Shown here one piece after another: positions 46,625-62,497 of a stretch of 64,000 bases of DNA. A program made the translations under genes and the position numbers. The notes under the pieces are model-generated. The model was not told the origin of the DNA and searched no databases. It saw nothing but the letters and a program-made list of their open reading frames with translations. Positions within the stretch are counted from its first letter, which is position 1, and each line of letters begins with the position of its first letter. Source of the stretch: Ganoderma boninense (taxonomy: Eukaryota; Basidiomycota; Agaricomycetes; Polyporales; Polyporaceae); the NCBI GenBank assembly GCA_002900995.3, contig CM035313.1:496001-560000 (forward strand). Reading direction: 5' to 3'.

Positions 46625-48070
46625 CGGGGGCGCGGGACTCGGAGTACCAGGATGGACAGCGGTGCGGGGGCCGTGCTGGGTGCTTGGACGTACTTTGCGC
46701 GCCGTGGGGAGGCGAGGGGTGGACCGACGGTTGCTGGGAGACTCAGCAGGTGGAGGGCAGGAGGCAAGGAGGCAGCAGGAGGTGAGGCCCAGGGTGCGAT
46801 AGGAAACGAGCGTGCTCGTGGGTGCAGATGGTATGCTGCCTGTGGTGCTATCGGGGGCACTAGTACTTGAGAGGGACGCCTCAAGCTTCGGAAGCGGCAC
46901 GGTGCCGGCGCGGTCGCTGGGGAGTGGCGAGGTGGGAATAGCACGGGCAAGGAAGGGGACGACAGGCAGCCTCGCCGTGTGCTGGGGTGAGCTGGTGAGA
47001 ACCCGTCGAAGCTGGGGGTCGCCAGGTCGCAGGAGAATGGAGCCGGTGGTGGGACTCCGAGTCTGGTGGGTGTGCCTGCGCGCAGCACCGCCGCTTCAGA
47101 CGTCTGGCAGTTGTGGTCCGCCCTGGACTGAGTAAGATGTCAGCGCAGGACTCGGACGAGCGAGACAGACGTCGACGTCGACAGCCGCGCGGAGGGCTCG
47201 AGGAGGGAGCACAAAGGAGGACTCGAGGACGATCATCCCTCCAGACTGAATGAGGTCCCTCGCCTCCACGGCACAGTCCGGCATCTCATGCCGCCTCGCC
47301 GACCAATGCCGGCCGTCTCGGCAGACGCTGCCCTCACTTCCTGCGAACGTCGAACGGAGTCGAACGTCGGACATGACATACTTACTTATGTACATATTGC
47401 CACGTCTCATGCGCAACTATACTTGCAACATATGGCGTATGGATGTGCCACCGCTACAACTTGAACTAGACCAGCACAACGCCTCCCAAACTAGCGATGA
47501 TGACGTCATGTTCATGGGCGTAGAAGCGAGCAAAATCATCATAGCCAGTCGTCGATCTTGCTCTCATTCCATTCTTGGGGGGAAGCGAAGCGAAGCGCCC
47601 TCCGGGACGATTTGCTGGAATGTTGAAGCCACCAGCTTAAGCCATTGAATGATGCAGCCAACAGATGAACGAGGCTGATAATGCTACACGAGAGATGCCT
47701 ACGGGGCAACGACGAGGACTCGTGGATGTAATGGCAACATATCTTAGCGAATCACGACGTCGACACGAACAAGGCGGCTGGTATGGAAATGACGTGGTTC
47801 CGATACGCACTTAGGCCCCGTGGTTGACAGCCTTTCCTTCTCCCAGCCAGACCTTGCGATAAGACAGACTTGGAGAAACGAGGCCTGAAAAAAATACATT
47901 GGCACGACCAGATCATAGTACCAGCGGCACGGCACCATGACCAGTTATTGATACAACGCCCCCCCGACGTTTAGCAAGACCGTGGTGAGTCCAGTACACA
48001 CGCACCGACGCCTCTCCTGAGTCTTTGTCTCTCCCGCCCTCCCTCCACCCTTCCATCCACAGCTCACGCA
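46625..48070. other. Intergenic, no gene recognised
   Basis: The first ~300 bp probably hold the promoter and leader of the PA-TM-RING gene. The rest separates it from the 3' end of the aminotransferase gene. No coding exons were found. Confidence 0.4.
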
Positions 48071-49929
48071 TCACGCCTTGCCCTCCTTGACGACCTCCCT
48101 CACCGCCTCCTCGAAGATCCGCACGCCCTTCGCAAGGTCCTCCTTCGAGACATTGAGCGGCGGGATGAACCGCACGACCTCGTACACGCTCGTCGTCAGG
48201 ATCAGCATCCCCTTCTCCACGCACCGCGCCGCGACGCGGCTCGCGAGCTTCGCGGGCACCGCCGCGTCCGCGAACCGGTCGTACGCGCCCGTCCCCGTCG
48301 GCGACGCGAACTCGACCGCGACCATCAGGCCCTTGCCGCGCACGTCCAGGATCGCGCGCGCGACCGCCGGGTCGGCGTCCGCGCGGAGCGCGTTGAGCGC
48401 CGCGAAGAGCTCCGTGGACCTGCCCAGACGAATGACGTTGGATGGAGGGTTAGCGTTCGGCAGTCAAAATGGAGCGCAAGAATAGATTCAGAGTTTGGGT
48501 TCAATATTGGACGGGCGGGTATACGACCGCATGACCGCGGGGGAAGCAAGGAAGAAGAAAACTTTGCTAGACAGGCAGGAGGCTGGGACGCACCGAGCGT
48601 TAACGTTGTCCAGGATCTTCTCTTCTTTCATGGCGTCCGCTGATGCGACAGCCGCTGCGCAGGACACGGCGTTGCCCGCGTACGTCCCGCCCATCGAGCC
48701 TGCGGGCAGCTTGTCCGTCAGCTCCTTGCGGCTGATCACGGCGCTCAGCGGGAAACCATTCGCCAAACCCTGCACCGTCAAAATCAGAATTCAGATACAT
48801 TGACTGCCAGTGTCAGGGAAAGAAGGGAGGGGAAGAGTTCAGGATGCGAACCTTGGCGCTGAGGAGGATGTCCGGCCGAACGCCAGAGTACTCGGTGTAG
48901 TAGTTCTTGCCCGTGCGGCCGAAGCCGCACTGCACCTCATCGATGATGAGCATGATGCCGTGCTTGTCGCAGATCTTCCGGAGCCCGTGCAGGAACTCCG
49001 GTGGGGCGGGCACGTACCCGCCCTCGCCGAGGACGGGCTCGATGATGATCGCCGCGGTGTCCTTCGGCGCGCTCGCCTGCGAAAGCAGTAGGTTCAGCTG
49101 GTTCAGACACATCTCGGAGAGCTCCGACGACGGCGTGCTCGGGTCAACTCCGAGCTGGTGCCAGAACGGGAAGGGGAGCGTGTACGCCCCAGGCTACAAA
49201 TAAATCAAGAAAGAACAACAGAAAGCAAAAGAGCAACGTAAGCGCTGCGGAATTTCGCGGGGCAGACAGAGACGGTGTAGCGCACCATGACCGGGTGGAA
49301 GCCCGCGCTGTAGATCGTCTTGCTCTTCGTGACGGCCATCGCGCCCATCGTGCGACCGTGGTACGCGCCCTGCATGTTGATGATGTTCTGGCGGCCGGTG
49401 AATGCGCGAGCCATCTTGATGCCTGCCTCGACGGCCTCGGAGCCCGAGTTCCAGAAGAAGAACGAATCCAGCGACGGGTGCGGCATCATGGGCAACAGCC
49501 GCTCGATGAGGTCGAGGTAAGGCTGGCTAAACGCGATGCTGCACTAAGGGACGCCGTACAGCGGAGTCAGCGGCGGTGTGATGGGGGATGGGTGTAGTGA
49601 AAGAACATAGAGACGACGGACCTGTACGTGGACGGCCTTCATGCACTGGTTGGCAGCTGCCTTACTGATCTTTGGGTGGCAGTGGCCTATGCAGCTCTGA
49701 TCAACCGGCCGCCTTGCAGACGGAATGAAAATGGGCAAACACACTCACCAAGGTTAGTGACACCGATGCCGCACGTAAAGTCAAGCATCTTCCTGCCGTC
49801 TCCGAGCGTAACGTACGAGCCTTCGGCCTTGGTCAGGACCGCATCGACGACGCGACCGAGGCCGGCCGTGACATGCTTCTTGCCGAACTGCACGAAGGAT
49901 TCGTGTGATTGGGTGGATGCGGATGCCAT
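48071..49929 (-). CDS. Class-III PLP aminotransferase (4-aminobutyrate transaminase-like)
   Basis: Six exons (49929-49749, 49686-49622, 49543-49286, 49193-48852, 48769-48594, 48419-48071) encode 456 aa. Landmarks: MLDFTCGIGVTNLGHCHPKI at the N-terminus, SFFFWNSGSEAVEAGIKMAR for the PLP phosphate site, GAYHGRTMGAM with the ring-stacking aromatic, AAIIIEPVLGEGGYVPAP, and LIIDEVQCGFGRTGKN containing the Asp that pairs with the pyridine nitrogen. The Schiff-base Lys282 ends exon 4 in DILLSAK followed by GLANGFPLSA. The closest described enzymes are GabT-type 4-aminobutyrate/5-aminovalerate transaminases; omega-amino acid specificity is inferred. No clear mitochondrial presequence is seen, so a cytosolic enzyme is likely. 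Confidence 0.93.
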
Positions 49930-51681
49930 GTTGCGTTTTTGGATAGCGTGAGTTTGGGGACCCGCCGCCTTTAAATGGTTTTGGATGCCATGTTGCGCGT
50001 CATTTGAGCATCGAGTCAGAGCCGCAGTTGAAAGGCTGCGGGGGCTAAGGGCACATATTTCAGCCGGTATGTCGACGTTGAAGAGAGCCCTTGGAGGAAG
50101 GTATGAGCCGGAAAAGATCCGGGGAGGCACGAGAACGTCATGTACGATAGAGGGCGTTGGCCGTGAAATGTCTTCAGACATCACTCGCGCAAACCGTTGT
50201 GCTTCCGACGGGTTCGTGTACGGCCCTGATATCTAGGCGCACAAATTGCAAGGCTCCATCTGATCCAGCTACTTCAATTTATCCGCAGACTTGAGTGAAG
50301 AGATAGAAATGGAAATGGTGGGCTTGGTCTAGCGTGCGGCTGACCGTTCTCTGGCCGCACTCAAATGAAGACGGGATGCAGCACCAACCACGACATAGTG
50401 TTGCATCAAAAATCCCACCACTGGACTCGCAAACAAGGACTTGCGAAGGGTGCAGCACGCTCAGGTGCCGTAAACAGGTCATACGACGCCTATTCAATGG
50501 CGTTATCACGATGGCCACCGAAGACGAAGGTGCCACGCCTTGTTGGCATGTCGGAGCCATTACCACGAAAGGGTGTCTCAGCAGCTTCTCTGCGGCTGCT
50601 CCGACCACAATGTGCGTTCTAACGACGATGTATGCGCACGAATATGTCAAAGTGCCAGACAAACTCTCCAACCCACAAGCCCCCCGATCTTAGTGCAATA
50701 GCCCAGGAGATTGGTGTCCCTCGTCCACCGGTATTAACCTTGGTTGTAAACGCTGAGTACTCACCTCGAGGTGCTTGGGTTCAGCGGGCCCCTGGCGCCC
50801 CCCTTGATTGCGGTCCTGGTCTGCTGAAGACGTGTGCAACCCGAAGAGAGCATGGTGGAGATAGGAGGAGAAGGAGAAGAGCCCAGCGGATCAGAGAGCG
50901 TTCAAGAAGAGCGCATATATGTAGGTGGAGGTTCAAGGCATGTTAGAGATGACTGTGGGCCGCACGGTATCGCCGGTTAGGTCATCCGGAGGCGGGGCCC
51001 CTTTTCCGTGCCCTAGGCCTTCCCATTGGATAGATTCTCCCGACCTGCTTCCAGTTCGCGAAGAGATGTCAGAGATACCCACGGCGGAGCACAGCTTCGA
51101 GACCTGTACTCACTCCCCGACATATCCCTACCGTCGTAGAAGACCACCACAAGCTCGGAGAAGTACAACCCAACCCTCGTCGGAAGTGTCCTCGCTGTCC
51201 GGTCCGAAAGATAAACATGGACGAACCTGCGTTCAACTTCTCCACCGTTAGCTTCCGGCTCATACCCTTGCAACCCCGCCGGCTACCAGGTGACCACGCC
51301 TCATGATCGGAAGCCGTGTTTGAAGAGCGGCTTGCGGCGTCACTGGCGAAGTGGCCGCACGTCTGTGTCGCGTAGCTTTAAGGGTTATGAAGCTGGCGCG
51401 GAGCGCAGATGGTCGGGGAGATGCAGAAGAGATTAAGCGAGCGTTCCTGACGTGCGCGTACTTGAAAGCTGCGACTTCCTCGGAAAAGGCCTAGGCGCGT
51501 CCAACGCTTCCCTCCGCTTCTTCCGCATCCCGTTCTCCGAGGCGCCTCGGGGAAGTCGGCCGCAAAGCACCGCATTGCGCAAGGCTCGTCCCCAGAGTGT
51601 CTTAAGTCTCACGTAATCGACGACCAACAAGTGGAATATAGAGCACAAAGACAAGATTCAACGTGTTGCTGAGAGATACTA
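49930..51681. other. Intergenic, no gene recognised
   Basis: Contains the aminotransferase promoter (near 49.93-50.2 kb). The remainder up to the transposon insertion site has no recognised gene or RNA. Confidence 0.4.
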
Positions 51682-51690
51682 GTGAATTCG
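51682..51690. repeat. Left 9-bp target-site duplication
   Basis: GTGAATTCG directly abuts the first base of the left inverted repeat and is repeated exactly at 59111-59119. It is the footprint of a single transposition event. Confidence 0.95.
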
Positions 51691-52248
51691 CAGGCTCCTA
51701 AAACCACCCGCTCGTTAGTGTCCTCGATCCCAGTACTCCAGCGGGGGTCAGGCTATATACTCCTAGATAGACGCTAGCTTAGTCATGTACCGAGCAGCCG
51801 AGTTACTTGTTATAGAAGAAATGTGGGGATGAGGACACTACAGAGCGGCTGGCCTTTCAAGTCGTCCGAGGTTCCTCCGACCCCCCTTCGCCCACCTAAA
51901 CGCTCAAGAAAATCAGGCCACACGGAATTCGCTTCGCAACATTTGTCTGTCGGCTTCCTCTCGGCGCGAACATACGCGAACACATTTGCGAATACCCGTG
52001 TCACAGCGCTAACACATCGCGCCGCGCCGTTACTATCGCGCGCACCTGCGCGTGCATGTCGCGAGCACATCGCGAGCACTGCGCAAATGCCGCGCGAGCA
52101 CTGCGCGAACCCCACGAACACTTTGGCAGTGTCCAGCCCTAAGTCCCCATCCTCTTGGAGGACAATCGCGTCAGCTTCAATGGTATCTCGGATGACCTTG
52201 AGCCGAGTCTTGTTGGTGACCCTGTTGCGGTTACGGAGTGCAGCAGGA
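51691..52248 (+). repeat. Left terminal inverted repeat (558 bp)
   Basis: It matches the reverse complement of 58553-59110 base for base as far as I checked; both protein-length translations across it agree. An inner inverted pair, TAGTGTCCTC (51716-51725) and GAGGACACTA (51831-51840), lies near the outer end. From ~51964 to 52112 the word GCGARCA(C/T) recurs five times, a candidate recognition array. The repeat ends at CAGCAGGA, where the two sides diverge. Confidence 0.95.
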
Positions 52249-55200
52249 CCTGGATGCGTAGCGCCAGGCATTTCATGGACGAGGGTGACTTGATCTTGGA
52301 CACTCTCGACCGACGTATGCCATCCGCCCCTGCTGAATGGACTCTTGCACGCATTCGCAATCTCGTCTCACGGAAGTTTGGCAAGCGTCCGTGTCTATGG
52401 CAACTCAAGGTGGCCCAATCTCTCCGGGACAAGAAGCGCAATGACGTCGTCGCCGTCGCTGCCACAGGCTGTGGGAAGACTCTATCATTTTGGATAGGCC
52501 TTCTGATGGCTTTGGAAGATGGGGAAGACAAGGTGGTTATTGTTGTAACACCTCTCAATTTATTAGGAAGACAGAATGCGGAAGGACTCCGAGCTGCCGG
52601 CATGAGCGCAATCGCGGTCGACGCGCAAAACTGTAATGACGACCTATTTCGGGTAAGTCTTGTTTAAGGTACATACATCTAATACTGATCATGCATTGCG
52701 CCACGATAGGATATCAAGGAGGGCCTGTACCGAATCATCGTGCTTGGCCCCGAAGTCGCAATGATGGAAGGGGGTCAATGCGAAAAGTTGTGGCAGGACT
52801 CCTCCTTTATCTCGAAGATTCTTTATATCATCTTCGATGAAGCGCACTGCATTAGCGAATGGTCGACATTCCGTGAGCAATACAAGTACCTTGGAAGCTT
52901 GCGCTATCTACTCTCGCTTCAGGTTCCATTTTACCTTCCATCCGCCACCCTTCCTGCCGCCGTCCTTTCCGAGGTTTCTGACACCATGCATCTTCGAAAA
53001 GAGACGACCGAATACATCCTTCGCTCAAACGATAGGCCGGAGATCGCGCTCGCTGTTCGTCCTATGCAGCACCCCATCCGCTCCTTCAAAGACCTGGACT
53101 TCCTGATCCCCGAGGGCTTCCGAGAAGGCGATACCCCACCTCCGAAGTTCCTCATCTTCTTCAATAGTGTTAAAGAGGCCGAGGACGCCACCATGTATCT
53201 GCGCGCACGGCTCCCTCAGCCCTGTCAGGGAAAGGTCAAGTGGTTTCACGCAACAATGACAGCGCCTTACCGGGAGGACGAATTCGAGGGGTTCAAGGAT
53301 GCCGAGACCTTTGGTCTCTGCGTTACAGACTCCTTCGGCATGGTAAGCAATTCATTTCAAGCAATCTAATGTAATAATAATGTTAGTTCACAGGGCTTGG
53401 ACATCGCTGATGTTGAATTAATTGTTCAATGGAGAGCACCAGTGAACATGAATACCTTGTGGCAGCGCTTCGGGCGTGCAGTGCGAGGCAATGGTCGATA
53501 CGCCTTTGCCATTCTCCTGGTAGAGAAAGAGTACACAGATGAGGAACGAGAACGGAAAGCCATGCAAGCAGCCAAGTGCAAGAATCAGCCCGCGCGGAAG
53601 CGGAAACAGAGCGAGACGGTTCGCAACGCACCTTCAAAGCGGCCAGCCTTGGCTGAGGTTGCGATTCCAAATCGCGAGGCACCACCTCCTCGCGCGTCGT
53701 CGTCGTCGTCATCGTCGGTGCGCGCGCCGTCATCATCTGTTCGCGCGTCATCCTCGTTCGCTCGCGTAGACCCACAGACCTCTTCCATAACTCACCGTCC
53801 TAGCGCGATGGTTGGCCCGCATCCTTACCATGGGTGGGGCTTTCACCCTCCTGGCAACCCCTTCCTCCCGGCGCTACCAGAGCAACCCCCGATGGCTGCT
53901 CTCCCGTCGTCAATGGGCACACCGCATACAGCCTACCCCATGCCCGCGCAGCCACCGCTCATCGTGTCCCACCCATACATGAATAACGCACCGATGGGTT
54001 TTGCACCGCCGCACTCCCACCTGACTCCACAAGTTGTTGGTCCCTCACCCGCGGCACTCCAGCTCCCACTCCTGCCGCCCCCCCTTCAAGACATGCATCA
54101 TTACAGCCTTGTGTTCCCCTCGGTGGCGGCGATGAGTGGCGTCGGGCATCCAGTTGCGAGCGTCGGGGAGATGAGTGCAATCGGGAGGAGAGTCGAGGAT
54201 GTCAAGATGGACGGAGGCGACGGAGAGGATGTCGAATCCGGCCGGCAAGATACGGAAGCCCACCCGGCGGGAGAACAGACCGAACGTGAAGGATCAGAAG
54301 CAAGGACAATGACAGAGAGAGCTCTCACCGATGAAGACCGGCGGGCAAGCTACAATAAGCGGTCCCTCAAGCCACTGCCCGCGCGTGCAAGTACGACTAA
54401 AGAAACGCGCTCGCTGCAGCCAGTACTGGACGACTTCATCAACGCAAAGCGTCGTGGCCTGGGGTGCAGGAGAAAGGTGGTCGAACTTTACTATTCAAAC
54501 GATAAACGAAGTGCGTCTTCCCTTCTGTTGATAGCGCGCGCGCGCGCGGGGCTGTTCTCACGCACAGAGCAGGCTTCGATCACGTCCAGTGCGACCCATC
54601 CGCCCCGTCGGGTTGCTCGCGTTGCTCCCCCAAGCACACTCTTGTCTGCTGCGACGTTTGCACTCCTATCGCATTCAGTGCCATCTTTCACTCTCCCTCT
54701 CCCACCACCACAGTTGTCGCCCCCCGCAAGATGAAGAAGTCGCATATTCCCCCCTACGATCCCTCTGCTTCCTGTCGCGCGCTTCGAGATGCTCTCTTCG
54801 ATTGGCGAGATGAACGCACCGTGGAGGATTTGGGCGACGATATCCTTGAAGACTACGGCGGATGCATAATACTTCCTGTGCAATCAGTCACTCGCATCGT
54901 CGATTGCGCGCAAGCCGGGAAGTTACAGACCCTCGATAACCTCAAGCGCGAGGTCGTGTGGACGAGCGACCACTTGGAGAAATACGGGCAGTCCCTTCTC
55001 GCAGTTGTACATTCCATATTCCCCCCTGCTCCTGCTCTCGCTCCCCCCTGCTCCCCCTCCCCCCAGCCCATTCCCTCTGGCTCATCCGCACCACCAGCAT
55101 TGTCTGCGTCTCTTACCAACAGCCTCTCGGCATCAGCGGGGGGGCTGGCGGAGGCTTCTTCAAGTTCAGTGAAGAGGGTGTATAAGTGTGGTCTTTGCAA

Positions 55201-55365
55201 GCAGAGCGGCCATAACCGTGCGTTCTTGACTTCATTCCCTTGGTGCATTCTCATGTTTTCGATGGTTCTGCAGGGAGACGGTGCCCAACACTGACGGGTT
55301 TTTCGATTCCGGACGAGAACACTCCACCTGCGGGTGGACCCCATCACGAGGACGGCGCGAATTGA
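52155..55365 (+). CDS. Transposon-encoded RecQ-like SF2 helicase with zinc knuckle
   Basis: Five exons (52155-52652, 52710-53342, 53394-54510, 54573-55217, 55274-55365) encode up to 994 aa. Helicase motifs in order: CLWQLKVAQSL, Walker A AATGCGKT (K109), IVVTPLNLLG, the DEAH box IIFDEAHCIS (209-212), SATLP, CVTDSFGM-GLDIADVELIVQW, and motif VI LWQRFGRAVRG. Downstream lie a basic linker, a ~250-residue Pro/Ser/Ala-rich stretch, a Cys-rich cluster (CDPSAPSGCSRC, VCCDVC) like the RecQ zinc site, and a C-terminal CCHC knuckle, CGLCKQSGHNRRRC (CX2CX4HX4C), split by the last intron. The start is uncertain: ATGs at 52155 (inside the inverted repeat), 52275 and 52317 (MPSAPAEWT) are all in frame. It is probably an accessory transposition protein. 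The frame is fully open. Confidence 0.9.
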
Positions 55366-55506
55366 CTGGTCAGCCATTACATTCCCCTTCCTTGCGCGGC
55401 ACCACTGACACCCTTCTCTATGCTGTACAGGTTGACTCTTGAATAATTCTAAGTGCTGATAATGAACGCGTCCGCATACTAATGAGTACTGTACCTCCGA
55501 ATGTAA
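55366..55506. other. Convergent 3' gap between the two transposon genes
   Basis: Only 141 bp separates the helicase stop codon (+) from the DUF6589 stop codon (-). No motif was recognised; transcripts probably overlap. Confidence 0.6.
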
Positions 55507-58391
55507 CTATACGTCTAGATCTCCGTTGTCGCCATCAATCTCATCTTCCACCACAAGCCCGTCTGTGAGGATCTCTCCATCCCCTTCATTTGCCATCTCC
55601 ATCAGTCTGTATGCGCCATCGTCTATCGTATTTGGCACTGGATGTTTTGTTTTTCGACCAGGAGTCACGATATGGGCGTTGTTGATTTCTATGTAGGTCC
55701 GCAGCTTCCGGAACGTCTTCTCCATCTTCGGGGCAGCGTGGCGGTACGTTCTATGCTCCAGCGCGAACATTTTTTCAAAGCTGATTCTGATTAGCTTGTA
55801 GACTCCAATGAGTGCGGCTTGCCGCAGGATGCGCTTCTTGGTACGATTTGAGAACTGGCCGCCGTATATTCGCTACAACAAGTAAGTGCTTGGGATGATC
55901 AGCGTCGCGAGGAAGGGACTTACTTTGGTGTAGAAATTGTTGTGTTCCATCCACCAGTCAATTGCGCGGAAGTGGTGCTTGCGACCAGTTGGGTTGCACA
56001 GAATGTTCATTCGGATTGCTCTTCTGCACAAGCAAATGCCAGTGTGAGCTTTTATTCGCTAATGACTTGGTTTCGCTCACCTTAATCCCGGGGGATAGAC
56101 ATTATGGACGTCATGCAGGAACTTGACCATCTGCGTAGCGTACTTGTGCTTGCCGCAAGCACGGAAGATGAACGCCCATGGCATAAAGCACGTCTCCACA
56201 CGGCCAATGTCTCCAGCGTTCATGGCTCCTCATACAACAAGAAATGTTGCTGCCTCAATAGTGCATTCTCCCATTGCTGATCCCTCTCCGCACCTGGCAT
56301 GTAGCGCAATCGGTGGAAGCGCTTGTCGGCGACATAGCTGCAAGTAAGGTGAGCTGCCATTGCTTGTATCTCATCCCATGACGGCTTTCGTGCAGCCCAC
56401 TCCTCTAGGCTGCCAAGGCGGTGTCGCTTCTGGACCTCCACCCGCCAACAGTCCAATCGCGACGCGATCCCAACATGCTGTATCACCTCATGCATTCTCC
56501 GGAACCCGGGCTTCGAGCTAATTTTCCCCGTCTCCTTCGGCCGGATTTCCGCGACGTAAGCCATTAGGCTCGTTAGATCTTCTCTTGCTGCGGAGGGCTG
56601 AATAAATATCTTCCAGATCGCGTCAGCGCATGCCATCTTCAAATGAAATAGGCCAATGCAGAAGATAACATGCTGGAACCGGCGCCAGGGTGATCTCTCG
56701 AGCGAACGTGACCGGAGGACGCTCTGGACACGTTCGCAAGTCGAGAGATCGCCGTGGACAATGATGACATGGTCGCCGACCGCCTTGACTCCGGGCGTGT
56801 CCTGGGGATCTCCGACGCCGCCCTGTCGAAAGAGGTCCTCGAGTGCGTCCTTGTTCCCATCTGCCTTCGATTGATTGATATCCATCCCTTCCACAGGTAC
56901 TTGCTGTGACTTGACAAGTGGGATCTGATCGACTGGCTGCGGGTCCCCAAGCTCATTGGCGAACTTTCGGAAATACTCGGGGCCATGGCGCACGAGGTCG
57001 TCGAGGAATTTCCACTGGTTGAATTGCTGACGTCGCGTCAACCCACTGCTCGGGCGGGGACCTTCGGGGTGGAGCTTTGCGAGGGATTTCCAGTCGATGC
57101 GGACTGGCGGTGAGGCATTTGCTTCGTTGAGTTTAGACTTGGCCCACAGCTCATCCGAACATTTCAGGTCGTCGAGGGTGACACCATGATCGAGAGGAAT
57201 GATGGCGCCCGCTGTCATGTGGAGAAGGGAGTCATGGGGCTTCTCGGCGGTAGGTACGAGGTGCTTTACTTCGACATCGAAGTTGTCAAAAACGTAGGAT
57301 CCGAGAAGGGACTGTCCAGCATTTCGAATATTGACGTGAGACTCTTTCCAGAGGCTTTTGACGGCGCTATCGATGGTCGACCGCGAGATCGAAATGCCGA
57401 TCCGGGAGAGTAGCTCAATCACTGACTCTGAGGCGCGACAAGCGTGGAGGTAGATTCCAACAGTGCTCTGCAAGGCGTTACACCGCTGATTTGTGTTTTG
57501 CATCAGGATGCTCATCGTAACAACAGCTTTCTGAGGATTGGTGAGCATTGATTTCCTTGTAAGTGATTGCAAACAGGTGCTTACGAGCGACGCTATGCTT
57601 TGTCTTCGATCAGTCAAATCCTCATAATCAGCATCGTCTGCGTCCTCTCCGGCACCATTTCCATCCATGTCCTCCTCATCTTCCTCGTCCTCTTCCCCTT
57701 CCTCGTCCTCGCCATCATCTTCATCGTCGTCCGGATCCTCGCCAGGCTGGCGCCTTCCTGTCTCTGCCCTCCATAGCAACCCATCGTCGTCGCCATCTGC
57801 TTCTTCCCAGAGAAGGGGCGGAAGGTCTTCCCAGTACTCGTCGTCGGACCCTTCTGCGTGGTCTACCTCCATAGGATCCTCCGGACGAGCCTCCTGCTCT
57901 GGTGCTGTCCTCTGAGTCTCGTCTGGGACGATCCCCTGACCTCTTCGCTCCCTCCGTCGACGCTTGTACCGTTTACGCCGGCTGGCTAAGCGCTCCGCAT
58001 CTGCGTCAAGTAGGATCTGCATCAAACCCCAGAGGACTGGTGCGCCCGTTTGATACTGCTCAACAAGTGCGCTGATCTCGAAGTTCTCGAGTTGATCTTG
58101 ACTAGCATACTTGGCAGCGAAGTGAAGGCCAGCATCGCGGCGCGTGAGGGCAAGGAGCTCTCTTCGGCAGACCTCTCGGGTGAACGCAACGGCCCAGGTC
58201 GCTAGGATTGGGTTTGAAGATGGATGAGTCTCGAGGGCGTCAAGAACGGTGATGGGGTCGATCAAGGGATGGATGACAGGAGAAGGCTCTGGAGACTCAT
58301 CGAGCAGTGCGATCAATAGATCTGACAGAGTGGCATGTGAGGTTTGGAGGATTCTGATGATCTCGGTGACCTCGGCGGCGAGCAGCGGCAT
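55507..58391 (-). pseudogene. DUF6589 protein, candidate DDE transposase, with one frame break
   Basis: Exons 58391-57585 and 57530-56220 give 705 aa ending YEEP-TGA. The family-like C-terminus continues in the -1 frame from ATG 56223 via exons to ~56090, ~56031-55930 and ~55872-55507. The 54-bp intron 57584-57531 keeps frame and could be mistaken for coding. Features: long acidic Asp/Glu run (~residues 220-250); two Asp motifs resembling DDE catalytic sites (YVFDNFDVEVK and VIIVHGDLSTCERV) with the conserved GLFHLKMACADAIWK; downstream of the break, IDWWMEHNNFYTK supplies a possible catalytic Glu. Stop and restart overlap as ATGA, with no intron able to bridge them. Either a recent 1-nt indel, a sequencing error, or recoding. 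The transposase role is inference from motifs and position. Confidence 0.85.
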
Positions 58392-58552
58392 GGTGTAGGT
58401 GTGGGAGTAGTGGCTGAAGGCATGTTTATTTTCTTGTACATGTATTCTACATCAGACTACAGGTTCCGAGACCACATGGACACAGTCTTGTTCCATCAAA
58501 AGTGGCTCGTGCGCGGCGCATTGCGTGAAATGTGGTTTGGCTTCTTCCTCGC

Positions 58553-59110
58553 TCCTGCTGCACTCCGTAACCGCAACAGGGTCACCAACAAGACTCGGCT
58601 CAAGGTCATCCGAGATACCATTGAAGCTGACGCGATTGTCCTCCAAGAGGATGGGGACTTAGGGCTGGACACTGCCAAAGTGTTCGTGGGGTTCGCGCAG
58701 TGCTCGCGCGGCATTTGCGCAGTGCTCGCGATGTGCTCGCGACATGCACGCGCAGGTGCGCGCGATAGTAACGGCGCGGCGCGATGTGTTAGCGCTGTGA
58801 CACGGGTATTCGCAAATGTGTTCGCGTATGTTCGCGCCGAGAGGAAGCCGACAGACAAATGTTGCGAAGCGAATTCCGTGTGGCCTGATTTTCTTGAGCG
58901 TTTAGGTGGGCGAAGGGGGGTCGGAGGAACCTCGGACGACTTGAAAGGCCAGCCGCTCTGTAGTGTCCTCATCCCCACATTTCTTCTATAACAAGTAACT
59001 CGGCTGCTCGGTACATGACTAAGCTAGCGTCTATCTAGGAGTATATAGCCTGACCCCCGCTGGAGTACTGGGATCGAGGACACTAACGAGCGGGTGGTTT
59101 TAGGAGCCTG
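58553..59110 (-). repeat. Right terminal inverted repeat (558 bp)
   Basis: Reverse-complement partner of 51691-52248, with the same nested TAGTGTCCTC pair and GCGARCA repeats. The DUF6589 start codon (58391) lies 161 bp inside its inner edge, so this repeat probably supplies the promoter. It also carries a duplicate of the helicase's possible first codons, which here run into unrelated sequence. Confidence 0.95.
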
Positions 59111-59119
59111 GTGAATTCG
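59111..59119. repeat. Right 9-bp target-site duplication
   Basis: GTGAATTCG immediately follows the last base of the right inverted repeat and is an exact copy of 51682-51690. Confidence 0.95.
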
Positions 59120-59493
59120 AAGCATAGGGGCACTGATAACACCTGCAACTCGACTCGTGCCAGTGCGTTCAATAACCCTTTATATACCATACATACTCAC
59201 CGTCAGGCTGGTAAGTCCTCCACCCCTCCTTGCATTACCCATTGTGGCTTCTGAGACAGAATCCTTCGGCAAACATGGCCAAGCCCCTAGGAAACGAACC
59301 GCTGACTGCCACCCAACCTGGGTATCACCTCGCCAAACTTCCTTGTACTCAACGAGCATCACGATCATGCATCCAAGAAGGCCCATGTACTTAGCGGAAC
59401 GATTACCGGAGCTAGCAACACATCGTCCAATATCTCATTAAACAAATAATTTACCGCAAACGACGCAGCACCACCTCGGCGACATCCTGAAGC
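59120..59493. other. Lipase 3' flank
   Basis: Short region between the transposon and the lipase stop codon. No gene was seen. Confidence 0.5.
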
Positions 59494-60777
59494 TCAGCTC
59501 TGGCACGCCTTGTCGCCGAACGAGATCCCGTTGAAGTACGGGCCCAAATGGTTCTGGATCGAGGTGTCGAGGACAGAGTTCCCAGCGGAGCAGTTCTGCG
59601 GGGGGAAAGGAGCAAGCGCCACGAACGTAAGAGACAGCCACAACCTGTCACGCGCGGCGGACGCTAATCACTCACCTGGTTCTCCGAGCCGGGGCAGGCG
59701 ACCATCGTCGCGGCCCCAGTCGAGTTGTTCACCTGTGTGATGTGCAGCTCGCCCTCGGGGTGCTCGAAGTCGAGGAAGTGCGGCGGCACGGTCGGCACCG
59801 GGTCGTTCTGGTTCGTGACGTGCGCGAAGTCCGGGATCTGCACACGCAAGGTTACATCGGCGCCGCAGCTCGCCATCGAGCACCGAGCACTCACCAGCTT
59901 GTTCAGCAGGTCCGCCCACTCCGAGTTTCCGACGCGCGGGAGCCCGAACACGACCGAGCTCACGGCGACGTCCTCGGAGAGCGCCATCCGGAGCATCGCC
60001 GCGTCCAGGCTGGCGACGGCAGCGCCGAGCGAGTGTCCCGTGACAAGCACCTTCTTGAAGCCGCTGTCCGCGAGCGCGCTCTTGACCGTCGCGAGCACGA
60101 CGTCCGCCGTCCGGCCCTGCGTCGCCTGGAAGCCCGAGTGCAGCTGCACGCCGCTGCCGGCCTGCGGGAAGAGCGTCGTGTTCGCGTCGACCTGCTTGAA
60201 CTCGACGTCGTTCGCGATCGAGAGCACCTTGTGCGGGTCCGTGCCCTGGTGCGCGACGACGATCGTCTGCTGGTCCGGGTCCTGCGCGATGAAGACTGTG
60301 GTGTCGCGGGTCAGCGCGATCAGCCGGGAGCAATCGTTTCGGTCAGCGCATGTCCGCGATCGGAGGGTAAGAGGACGCATGCGCGCGCGATGCTCAAACC
60401 AAACCGAAACGCGAAACAGGTGTGTGTGCGCGTGTGGGTGCGCGCGCTCGCGGGAAGGGGTGGAATGGGATGCACTCACAGCTTGGGATCTCGCCATCGT
60501 CACCGCCCGCAGCCAACACCTTTACATTCGGCAGCGCCGTGCACGACGAGCCGCACGACCAATTCTCCACCTGGTCTGTGGGGCAGTATGCCGCGCGCGA
60601 GAACTGGGCGGGGCGCTGGAGGTCGGTCGTGATGTTGTTTTGCGAGAAGGCGGTCGGCTTGGCGTCTGACTCCTCTCCAGAAGCGATGTTGATGCCGAAG
60701 AGTGGGGTTGGGGCAGCTCGCGCAAGCGCGGCAAGGGCTGCGATGCCGAGGAAGGAGTTAAGGAGGACGCGCACCAT
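59494..60777 (-). CDS. Secreted class-3 (alpha/beta hydrolase) lipase
   Basis: Four exons (60777-60480, 60295-59895, 59837-59676, 59595-59494) encode 320 aa. A signal peptide is evident (MVRVLLNSFLGIAALAALAR). The catalytic triad can be placed: Ser188 in the nucleophile elbow VTGHSLGAA, Asp245 in TNQNDPVPTVPP, and His303 in QNHLGPYF. The IVVAHQGTDP stretch supplies the oxyanion-hole region, as in Rhizomucor/Thermomyces-type lipases. Paired cysteines (YCPTDQVENWSCGSSC) are typical of the secreted fungal family. It should hydrolyse triacylglycerols or related esters (feruloyl-esterase-like activity is an alternative) outside the cell. The 59-nt gap between the end of exon 2 and the start of exon 3 is a normal intron. 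Confidence 0.94.
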
Positions 60778-62497
60778 GGTTGGTCGTTGCGAAAGAGTGG
60801 TAGGAAGATGGGAAACTGGCAGCCGGAGCGAGAAGGCGAAGGGAACAGAACACGGAGCTCCAGGCAACGGATAGAAAACAAGAAGGGTACCACCGGGGCC
60901 CCAAAGGCAGAACGAGAAGAGAGAGGAGGAACAGCGACGAGGAGGTCGGCAACGCGAAGGACGAGGTGATGTTCTTATGTATCGCGCTGACCGACTGGCG
61001 CTGACCGTCGAGATATCCGGCAACCCGTCCCACTCACGCGCCGACCCGATGCGTGGGCGACAATTGGGTGCCCTGTTGAAGAGCATCTCAGACATTGCCG
61101 ACGGCGCCAGCGAGGCACTGCAAGGCAACCGGGGAGGATATGATAGGGCGCAGATGCATCACTGCTGATCGCCGCTGGAAGAACTTGGAAAAAGTCTGGG
61201 CTGTCGCATGAGTACTAACTGTGGAGACACGCGGAAGCTCACCTGGGTGAGAGGGAATTATCATCAATGCGACAGAGCAACGTGAGATGCGGGACTGACA
61301 TGCGGATCATTGCGGTGCGAAGGCAACAGTTTGTGTTATTTGACCTTTGAGAAAGCTTGGACGCTGCTTAGACTCGCTTCAAATTATGATTGAGGTCGTA
61401 CGCTTCAGTCGAAAGCAATCTAGCGCTGTTGCTTGTTTGTATATAAGTTGCTGAGCGTTGAATAGACTGAGTTGAGTATGCGGGGCCATGAGAGAGACAT
61501 CGGAGATGTGGCGGAGGCAGGCGGTGCCGGGCTTTGATGGGCTCTATAATTGGCTTAAAGGGAGTGAGGCTGTGCTCTATGTTAGCTTATAAGTAGGAAG
61601 TAAGGAGGGCACCAGGGTCCACTGAACCATCTCGGTAATTAGATCTACTTACTCAACTAGACCCTGAAGTTCCTGCCAACCAAGTTGTGCGAGGTACCAG
61701 GTTGTGCCCTGAGGCCTGAAAGCCCCTTTCTGTGTCGTCTCAATCACAGGACACTGATTTCTCCTTTAGGACTGTTTCAGACCTAATTTTGATTCAGTTG
61801 CTGTGACCCTTGCCGCAGTATATGTCCAGCCACAGGTGCCATGGTCAATCCATATGAACGCAGTGTCAGTGGCTATGTAGAAAAGTGCTTGTCCTTACGG
61901 TAAACACATACGCCGTGATACTCCTTTCCGCCAGCCAAACATGCTTCAAAATCTGGGGTTGAGTGACAATGACCCGGTGCGCGCCATCCATCTTCCGGGA
62001 TCCGCAGACAGCTTGACGCCACTGTCCGAAAAAAACAATGACTCGTGGTGAGACCATGTCGATTCACTGTCCCATAACGCACCCGTAGACTCCCCACATA
62101 CCGCCCCGCTGGGATAACAATACTTACCTGCTACTCGACAGCCTCCATGTGCACGTCATCTGTTGCGGCCCGCGGGAACCATTTGTCACATTGCGTATAT
62201 CCAGCGGGTAACGCACCCGCGCGTCAGGGGCATTCCGTTCGACTCCATGCGCGGAGGAACCCATTTGGGCAAGAGAGGCTCGTCATGCCTCGATGGAAGA
62301 GCTGCGCCATGACGACGCACTCCTCCTGGGGTCCGCTGTATCATCGAGAGCCAAGCATGACCGAATGCACGTTCGGGCGTATAAAGACCGGCTCCCCCAA
62401 GCCTGAGCCTAGTGTCAAAGGTCACTGCGCCCCGTTCCACCACCGCTCCTTCTCTCAACCCAGCATCAGCACTTTCAACGCGAATTCGACCCCGAAG
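60778..62497. other. Divergent intergenic region between lipase and HSP9/12
   Basis: Both promoters must lie here. Near the HSP9/12 end there is a TATAAAG (62380-62386) and an AGGGG word (62226-62230) that fits a stress-response element. No gene was recognised in 61.0-62.1 kb. Confidence 0.45.
62380..62386 (+). promoter_or_regulatory. TATA box of HSP9/12 gene
   Basis: TATAAAG lies 118 bp upstream of the ATG at 62498, the same spacing seen for the OYE TATA boxes in this window. A possible AGGGG stress element lies ~150 bp further upstream. Confidence 0.6.

What the first reader, a model, noticed from the sequence alone, without database searches (positions are those of the whole stretch)
51682..59119. 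Complete, recent 7.4-kb transposon pairing a RecQ-like helicase with a DUF6589 protein
Seen directly: inverted repeats of 558 bp on each side, apparently identical, CAGG..CCTG ends, a perfect 9-bp duplication, and two convergent genes filling the interior. DUF6589 proteins are abundant in mushroom-forming fungi and usually annotated only as unknown. Here one sits in a sharply bounded mobile element, which argues that DUF6589 is a transposase. AcademH (Academ elements with an SF2 helicase) is the nearest described type I recall; whether DUF6589 has been formally tied to it I cannot verify.
Basis: partly seen in the sequence, partly recalled or inferred. Interest (0 to 1): 0.88.

Follow-up and report, generated by a model that had tools for sequence, protein, structure and literature searches.

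The report
DUF6589–helicase fungal cut-and-paste transposon
A genome, likely of a bracket fungus, carries a 7.4-kb transposon with identical 558-bp ends, a 9-bp target duplication, a helicase gene and a frameshifted gene of the unnamed DUF6589 family; DUF6589 is predicted to be the enzyme that moves it, so many fungal proteins listed as 'unknown' are likely transposases of the already described AcademH kind.

The parts
51682..51690 (.). left 9-bp target-site duplication GTGAATTCG
   Evidence: direct sequence
51691..52248 (+). left terminal inverted repeat, 558 bp, begins CAGGCTCC; its first ~189 bp are 98% identical to the ends of four ~1-kb non-autonomous copies and 89-91% to two more
52254..55365 (+). 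RecQ-like SF2 helicase gene, five predicted exons (52254-52652, 52710-53342, 53394-54510, 54573-55217, 55274-55365), 961 aa, frame open; CCHC-knuckle-like C-terminus; start codon 6 bp inside the inner end of the repeat
   Evidence: splicing predicted by GT-AG and frame; DEAD 2.1e-19, Helicase_C 1.4e-14, knuckle PF13696 below cut-off; TIGR00614 recQ_fam 2.7e-36, below its curated cut-off; WRN, RECQ5, RecQ among solved structures
56220..58391 (-). DUF6589 gene, 5' part: predicted exons 58391-57585 and 57530-56220 around a predicted 54-bp intron; 705 aa, ending one residue after the predicted catalytic E; predicted acidic triad codons at 57287 (D351), 56750 (D530), 56228 (E704)
   Evidence: PF20231 E 4.7e-60
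55507..56219 (-). out-of-frame 3' remainder of the DUF6589 gene (C-terminal ~200 residues of homologues), cut off by the frameshift
   Evidence: tblastn frame change at one base; PF20231 275-410 at C10:551738-552253 with stops; open frame down to 55507
58553..59110 (-). right terminal inverted repeat, 558 bp, identical to the left one in reverse complement
59111..59119 (.). right 9-bp target-site duplication GTGAATTCG

Best explanation
The 7,420-bp stretch at 51691-59110 is a DNA transposon, flanked by a 9-bp duplication, whose DUF6589 gene (frameshifted in this copy) is predicted to encode an RNase-H-fold DDE transposase that likely moved it by cut-and-paste, probably together with the neighbouring RecQ-like helicase, as an AcademH-type element. 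Shown: ends, duplication, gene pair, recurrence of the same anatomy at other loci of the genome, empty sites for two related insertions, and the frameshift. Predicted: the transposase would bind the CAGGCTCC ends, cut both, and join them to target DNA with a 9-bp stagger, which host repair fills in as the duplication. Inferred: the helicase would open or process DNA at the ends or during repair, and in this element the identical long repeats would carry a promoter for each of the two convergent genes (the helicase ATG lies 6 bp inside the left repeat). This copy probably can no longer move itself.
Against: No reference Academ transposase could be compared. Foldseek alone gave no match below E 1e-3 (best Hermes 9.6e-3), and the model is largely helical, for which middling Z can be unspecific (note). 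The DUF6589 profile shows no link to any solved structure by sequence (best E 0.79). No empty site was found for the window's own insertion, though only 40 of 138 candidates were scored. For 8 of the 16 DUF6589 loci no duplication was established: three scanned without success, four searched for inverted repeats only, one not examined. For the C1 and C3 elements the scan that set the ends also used the duplication. In 3 of the 15 pairs (C3, C38, C2:2257k) the genes run apart instead of towards each other (coordinates), so the promoter-in-repeat idea cannot hold there in this form. This copy's transposase gene is broken.
Confidence: 0.86

Rival explanations
1. A Mutator-like element (MULE): long inverted repeats and about 9-bp duplications are MULE hallmarks (recalled), here with an unusual transposase and an acquired helicase.
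Against: No PF10551 match in four DUF6589 homologues at E up to 10 nor in the window exon at E up to 0.1; the six PF10551 matches of this genome lie elsewhere; a helicase at 15 of 16 DUF6589 loci is not a MULE trait that I know of.
Confidence: 0.05
2. DUF6589 elements are a separate DDE superfamily that paired with a RecQ helicase independently of AcademH.
For: No direct sequence link to Academ was tested; no held paper contains the name DUF6589 and PF20231 occurs only in four papers that look unrelated by title.
Against: Helicase type, duplication length and fungal host all coincide with AcademH as quoted.
Confidence: 0.06
3. A host helicase and DUF6589 gene pair, not a mobile element; the inverted repeats are a segmental duplication or assembly artefact.
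For: The full-length element is single-copy in this assembly.
Against: Exact 9-bp duplications at ten copies with the same CAGGCTCC ends and at two with other ends, all in megabase contigs, and empty sites for two.
Confidence: 0.01
4. A KolobokH or KDZ (Kyakuja-Dileera-Zisupton) element with a helicase.
For: KolobokH also carries a RecQ helicase and is found only in fungi (PMC9587614 passage).
Against: Kolobok duplicates TTAA (recalled); Zisupton/Dileera 8 bp and Kyakuja 7 bp (PMC12730594 passages); the DUF6589 profile does not match 12 frames from four KDZ loci of the same genome (best E 0.76).
Confidence: 0.02

Closest known systems
AcademH (lineage of the Academ superfamily; Kojima 2020, Mob DNA 11:15, not held, known from citations and recall)
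   Same: Fungal element with an SF2/RecQ-like helicase gene, a DDE-type transposase gene (predicted here) and 9-bp duplications (AcademH: 9 or 10 bp, PMC10045372 passage).
   Different: No difference found; the sequence relation of the transposases was not testable here. The Pfam name DUF6589 is not attached to it in the held library.
AcademX
   Same: Same superfamily as AcademH by the literature.
   Different: Encodes a nuclease and duplicates 3 or 4 bp.
hAT (Hermes)
   Same: Best fold match to the predicted model.
   Different: No hAT family match in Pfam; 8-bp duplications and no helicase (recalled).
KolobokH
   Same: Fungal DDE transposon with a RecQ helicase.
   Different: TTAA duplication (recalled) against 9 bp here.

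Membership tests
AcademH | 9- or 10-bp target-site duplication | tested here: met
   12 of 14 copies with both ends exact 9 bp; rule from PMC10045372 passage
AcademH | SF2 helicase in the element; in fungal Academ copies PF00270 and recQ_fam | tested here: met
   PF00270 2.1e-19, TIGR00614 2.7e-36 but below its curated cut-off; helicase at 15 of 16 DUF6589 loci; rule from PMC6416283 passage
AcademH | transposase homologous to Academ transposases | not testable with these tools
   no Academ reference sequence at hand; papers not held
AcademH | terminal inverted repeats (recalled) | tested here: met
   relatives
DDE/RNase-H transposases | RNase-H fold with D on the first strand, D after the fourth, E on a late helix | tested here: met
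   by prediction only; against: Foldseek alone above E 1e-3
MULE | PF10551 domain | tested here: not met
KDZ | KDZ transposase (PF18758) | tested here: not met
   no Pfam match; DUF6589 profile against 12 frames of four KDZ loci best E 0.76
KDZ | 8-bp (Zisupton, Dileera) or 7-bp (Kyakuja) duplication | tested here: not met
   9 bp here; rule from PMC12730594 passages
KolobokH | TTAA duplication (recalled) | tested here: not met
hAT | 8-bp duplication (recalled) and hAT domains in Pfam | tested here: not met
   the fold resemblance to Hermes remains

The most novel reading that the evidence does not exclude
DUF6589 founds its own superfamily of eukaryotic DDE transposases, obligately paired with a RecQ helicase, that spread through Agaricomycetes in several subfamilies (CAGGCTCC, TAGTCTCG and TAGRCTCG ends) and merely resembles AcademH; helicase-dependent cut-and-paste transposition would be its hallmark.
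Probability: 0.07. Interest if true: 0.75.

Novelty: new member of a known kind. Interest (0 to 1): 0.42.

Why it matters
DUF6589 proteins are numerous in mushroom-forming fungi (two searches returned 40 and 279 proteins at E up to 0.001 from capped candidate lists) and stand in databases as proteins of unknown function; naming them as transposases would clean up gene counts and keep their RecQ-like neighbours from being taken for host repair genes. The near-identical ~1-kb copies with the same ends suggest recent activity in this lineage and would be ready substrates for testing what a RecQ helicase does in cut-and-paste transposition, which I believe is open.

Tried and rejected
Papers: DUF6589 in 0 papers; PF20231 in 4 papers that look unrelated, judged by listing only; the AcademH paper and the 2017 paper on fungal cut-and-paste transposons are not held. 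Sequence search of the DUF6589 profile against solved structures gave nothing (best E 0.79), so the fold argument rests on a predicted model of a homologue. Rfam: no match in 48000-62000. Artefact and host-gene readings rejected on recurrence. No duplication was established for DUF6589 loci C38, C25 and C5:1720k (scanned; the one candidate at C38 lay inside the repeat and was discarded), for C13, C2:2257k and the two C7 units (searched for inverted repeats only), nor for the fragment C2:4111162 (not fetched). A peptide-like stretch in the repeat (52158-52285) was followed as possible gene capture; it matches short dispersed stretches of unknown nature and no Pfam family above cut-off, so it was left open. 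The second structure job and the viral fold library were not used.

Full report
What is there. Window 51691-59110 is bounded by 558-bp inverted repeats that are 100% complementary, begins CAGGCTCC and ends GGAGCCTG, and is flanked on both sides by GTGAATTCG, 9 bp. The window lies in a 3.7-Mb contig (C10) of an unnamed 55.6-Mb genome. The closest protein relative found, from Ganoderma leucocontextum, is 91% identical to the window's DUF6589 protein over 446 residues and 79% over another 89, so the host is probably a polypore near Ganoderma (inference).

Genes. On + the helicase gene, spliced by GT-AG and frame into five exons (52254-55365), gives 961 aa without a stop. It matches DEAD (2.1e-19) and Helicase_C (1.4e-14), recQ_fam TIGR00614 (2.7e-36, 125 bits, under that model's cut-off of 220) and, among solved structures, WRN (9.5e-27), RECQ5 and bacterial RecQ. 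A CCHC knuckle at the C-terminus is below Pfam's cut-off (19.6 against 27 bits). Its ATG lies 6 bp inside the inner end of the left repeat, so the repeat may carry its promoter (inference). On - the DUF6589 gene starts at 58391, has one predicted 54-bp intron and is open to 56220; PF20231 matches at 4.7e-60.

The DUF6589 frame is broken. With the homologue P0003 as query, tblastn on the window runs in one frame to residue 679 and resumes at residue 683 in another frame at the same base. P0003 and the four closest paralogues of the genome read through this place, as does the Ganoderma protein P0001. The window copy would make 705 aa, ending one residue after the predicted catalytic E and lacking some 200 C-terminal residues of P0003. 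It is probably inactive, although its helicase frame is open.

Recurrence. A search with the left end found short copies that share its first ~189 bp, at 98% in four and 89-91% in two. These six have both ends: C10:1696696-1697747, C9:922811-923862, C6:3603909-3604960, C4:226085-227715 (with a nested insertion), C1:1251615-1252668 and C3:3702722-3703775. All six have exact 9-bp duplications. The C10 and C9 copies are 99.9% identical; the most distant pair differs by 16%, yet the two arms of each copy are 99-100% alike. Two further places hold one end only (C10:2169361, C3:721409). DUF6589 elements with both ends, besides the window: C9:863861-870139, C4:689774-696037 and C2:5265909-5272329 (CAGGCTCC ends, exact 9 bp); C2:205874-213668 (CAGGCTCC ends, 8 bp); C1:454256-460581 (TAGTCTCG ends, exact 9 bp); C5:2207622-2214178 (TAGTCTCG ends, 7 of 9); C3:2005435-2013030 (TAGACTCG/TAGGCTCG ends, exact 9 bp). 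In sum 12 of 14 copies with both ends have exact 9-bp duplications. For the C1 and C3 elements the scan that set the ends also used the duplication, so they weigh less. For the other 8 of 16 DUF6589 loci no duplication was established: three scanned without success, four searched for inverted repeats only, one not examined.

Empty sites. Joined flanks of 13 insertions were searched in the same genome (40 of 138 candidates scored, 72 matches). Those of C4:689774 match four places continuously through the junction at 81-85%. Those of C4:226085 match 32 places at 97-100%, but the match extends only 18-28 bp left of the junction, 9 of them the duplication itself. The other 11, the window included, gave no match across the junction beyond their own flanks; since not all candidates were scored, an empty site may have been missed.

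Pairing. PF20231 has 33 matches that I grouped into 16 loci. A helicase related to the window's lies next to 15 of 16: 12, one, two. The gap is 1.7-3.8 kb in 14 and 9.4 kb in one; the sixteenth locus is a fragment. One of the 13 helicase matches has no DUF6589 match near it (C2:4171184). In 12 of the 15 pairs the genes face each other as in the window; in 3 (C3, C38, C2:2257k) they run apart (coordinates), so promoters in the terminal repeats cannot be general.

Placement. Papers were seen as passages only. PMC10045372: AcademH generates 9 or 10 bp duplications and AcademX 3 or 4, encoding helicase and nuclease respectively. PMC6416283: most fungal Academ copies contain recognizable domains such as DEAD/DEAH helicase PF00270 and recQ_fam and are often annotated as host genes. 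PMC10799480: AcademH is low-copy in Basidiomycota, Ascomycota and Mucoromycota. PMC9587614: KolobokH carries a RecQ helicase. PMC12730594: KDZ duplications are 7 or 8 bp. The window element fits AcademH in both features that could be tested against the literature. DUF6589 matches neither MULE nor KDZ in Pfam, and its profile does not match 12 frames from four KDZ loci of the same genome. The AcademH paper itself is not held, so the transposase comparison stays undone. DUF6589 occurs in none of the held papers and PF20231 only in four that look unrelated.

Mechanism. Committed reading: DUF6589 would bind the terminal repeats, cut at the CAGG ends and insert with a 9-bp stagger. The helicase step is inferred; candidates are opening the ends before cutting, or clearing the target gap afterwards. 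The ~1-kb copies, which share only about 189 bp with the window's ends, are likely moved in trans by a related autonomous source that was not identified here.

Noticed in passing
window 52158-52285 (mirrored in part at 58553-58643): A ~130-bp stretch across the inner end of the repeat and the helicase start is 92% identical to C4:2720819-2720947 and resembles five other short places of the genome; its nature is unknown.
   Followed up: partly
G000 C7:639494-652586: Two 6.5-kb DUF6589+helicase units lie in direct tandem, 99.5% identical.
   Followed up: no
G000 C2:205874-213668: DUF6589 element that holds a further inverted-repeat pair of about 468 bp (95% alike), perhaps a nested insertion.
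   Followed up: no
G000 C4:226085-227715: Non-autonomous copy with a ~580-bp insertion in its right arm; the copy itself sits in a repeat found at 32 other places.
   Followed up: partly
G000 C3:2005435-2013030, C38, C2:2257k: In these three DUF6589+helicase pairs the genes run apart instead of towards each other.
   Followed up: no
the twelve exact 9-bp duplications: Base 1 is G in 9 of 12 and base 8 is C in 8 of 12, a possible target preference; too few to test.
   Followed up: no
window 59664-60521: Frame with a class 3 lipase domain on the minus strand next to the insertion (Lipase_3 1.7e-21).
   Followed up: no
G000 whole genome: 152 KDZ transposase matches (a lower bound) against 16 DUF6589 loci and 6 MULE matches.
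   Followed up: no
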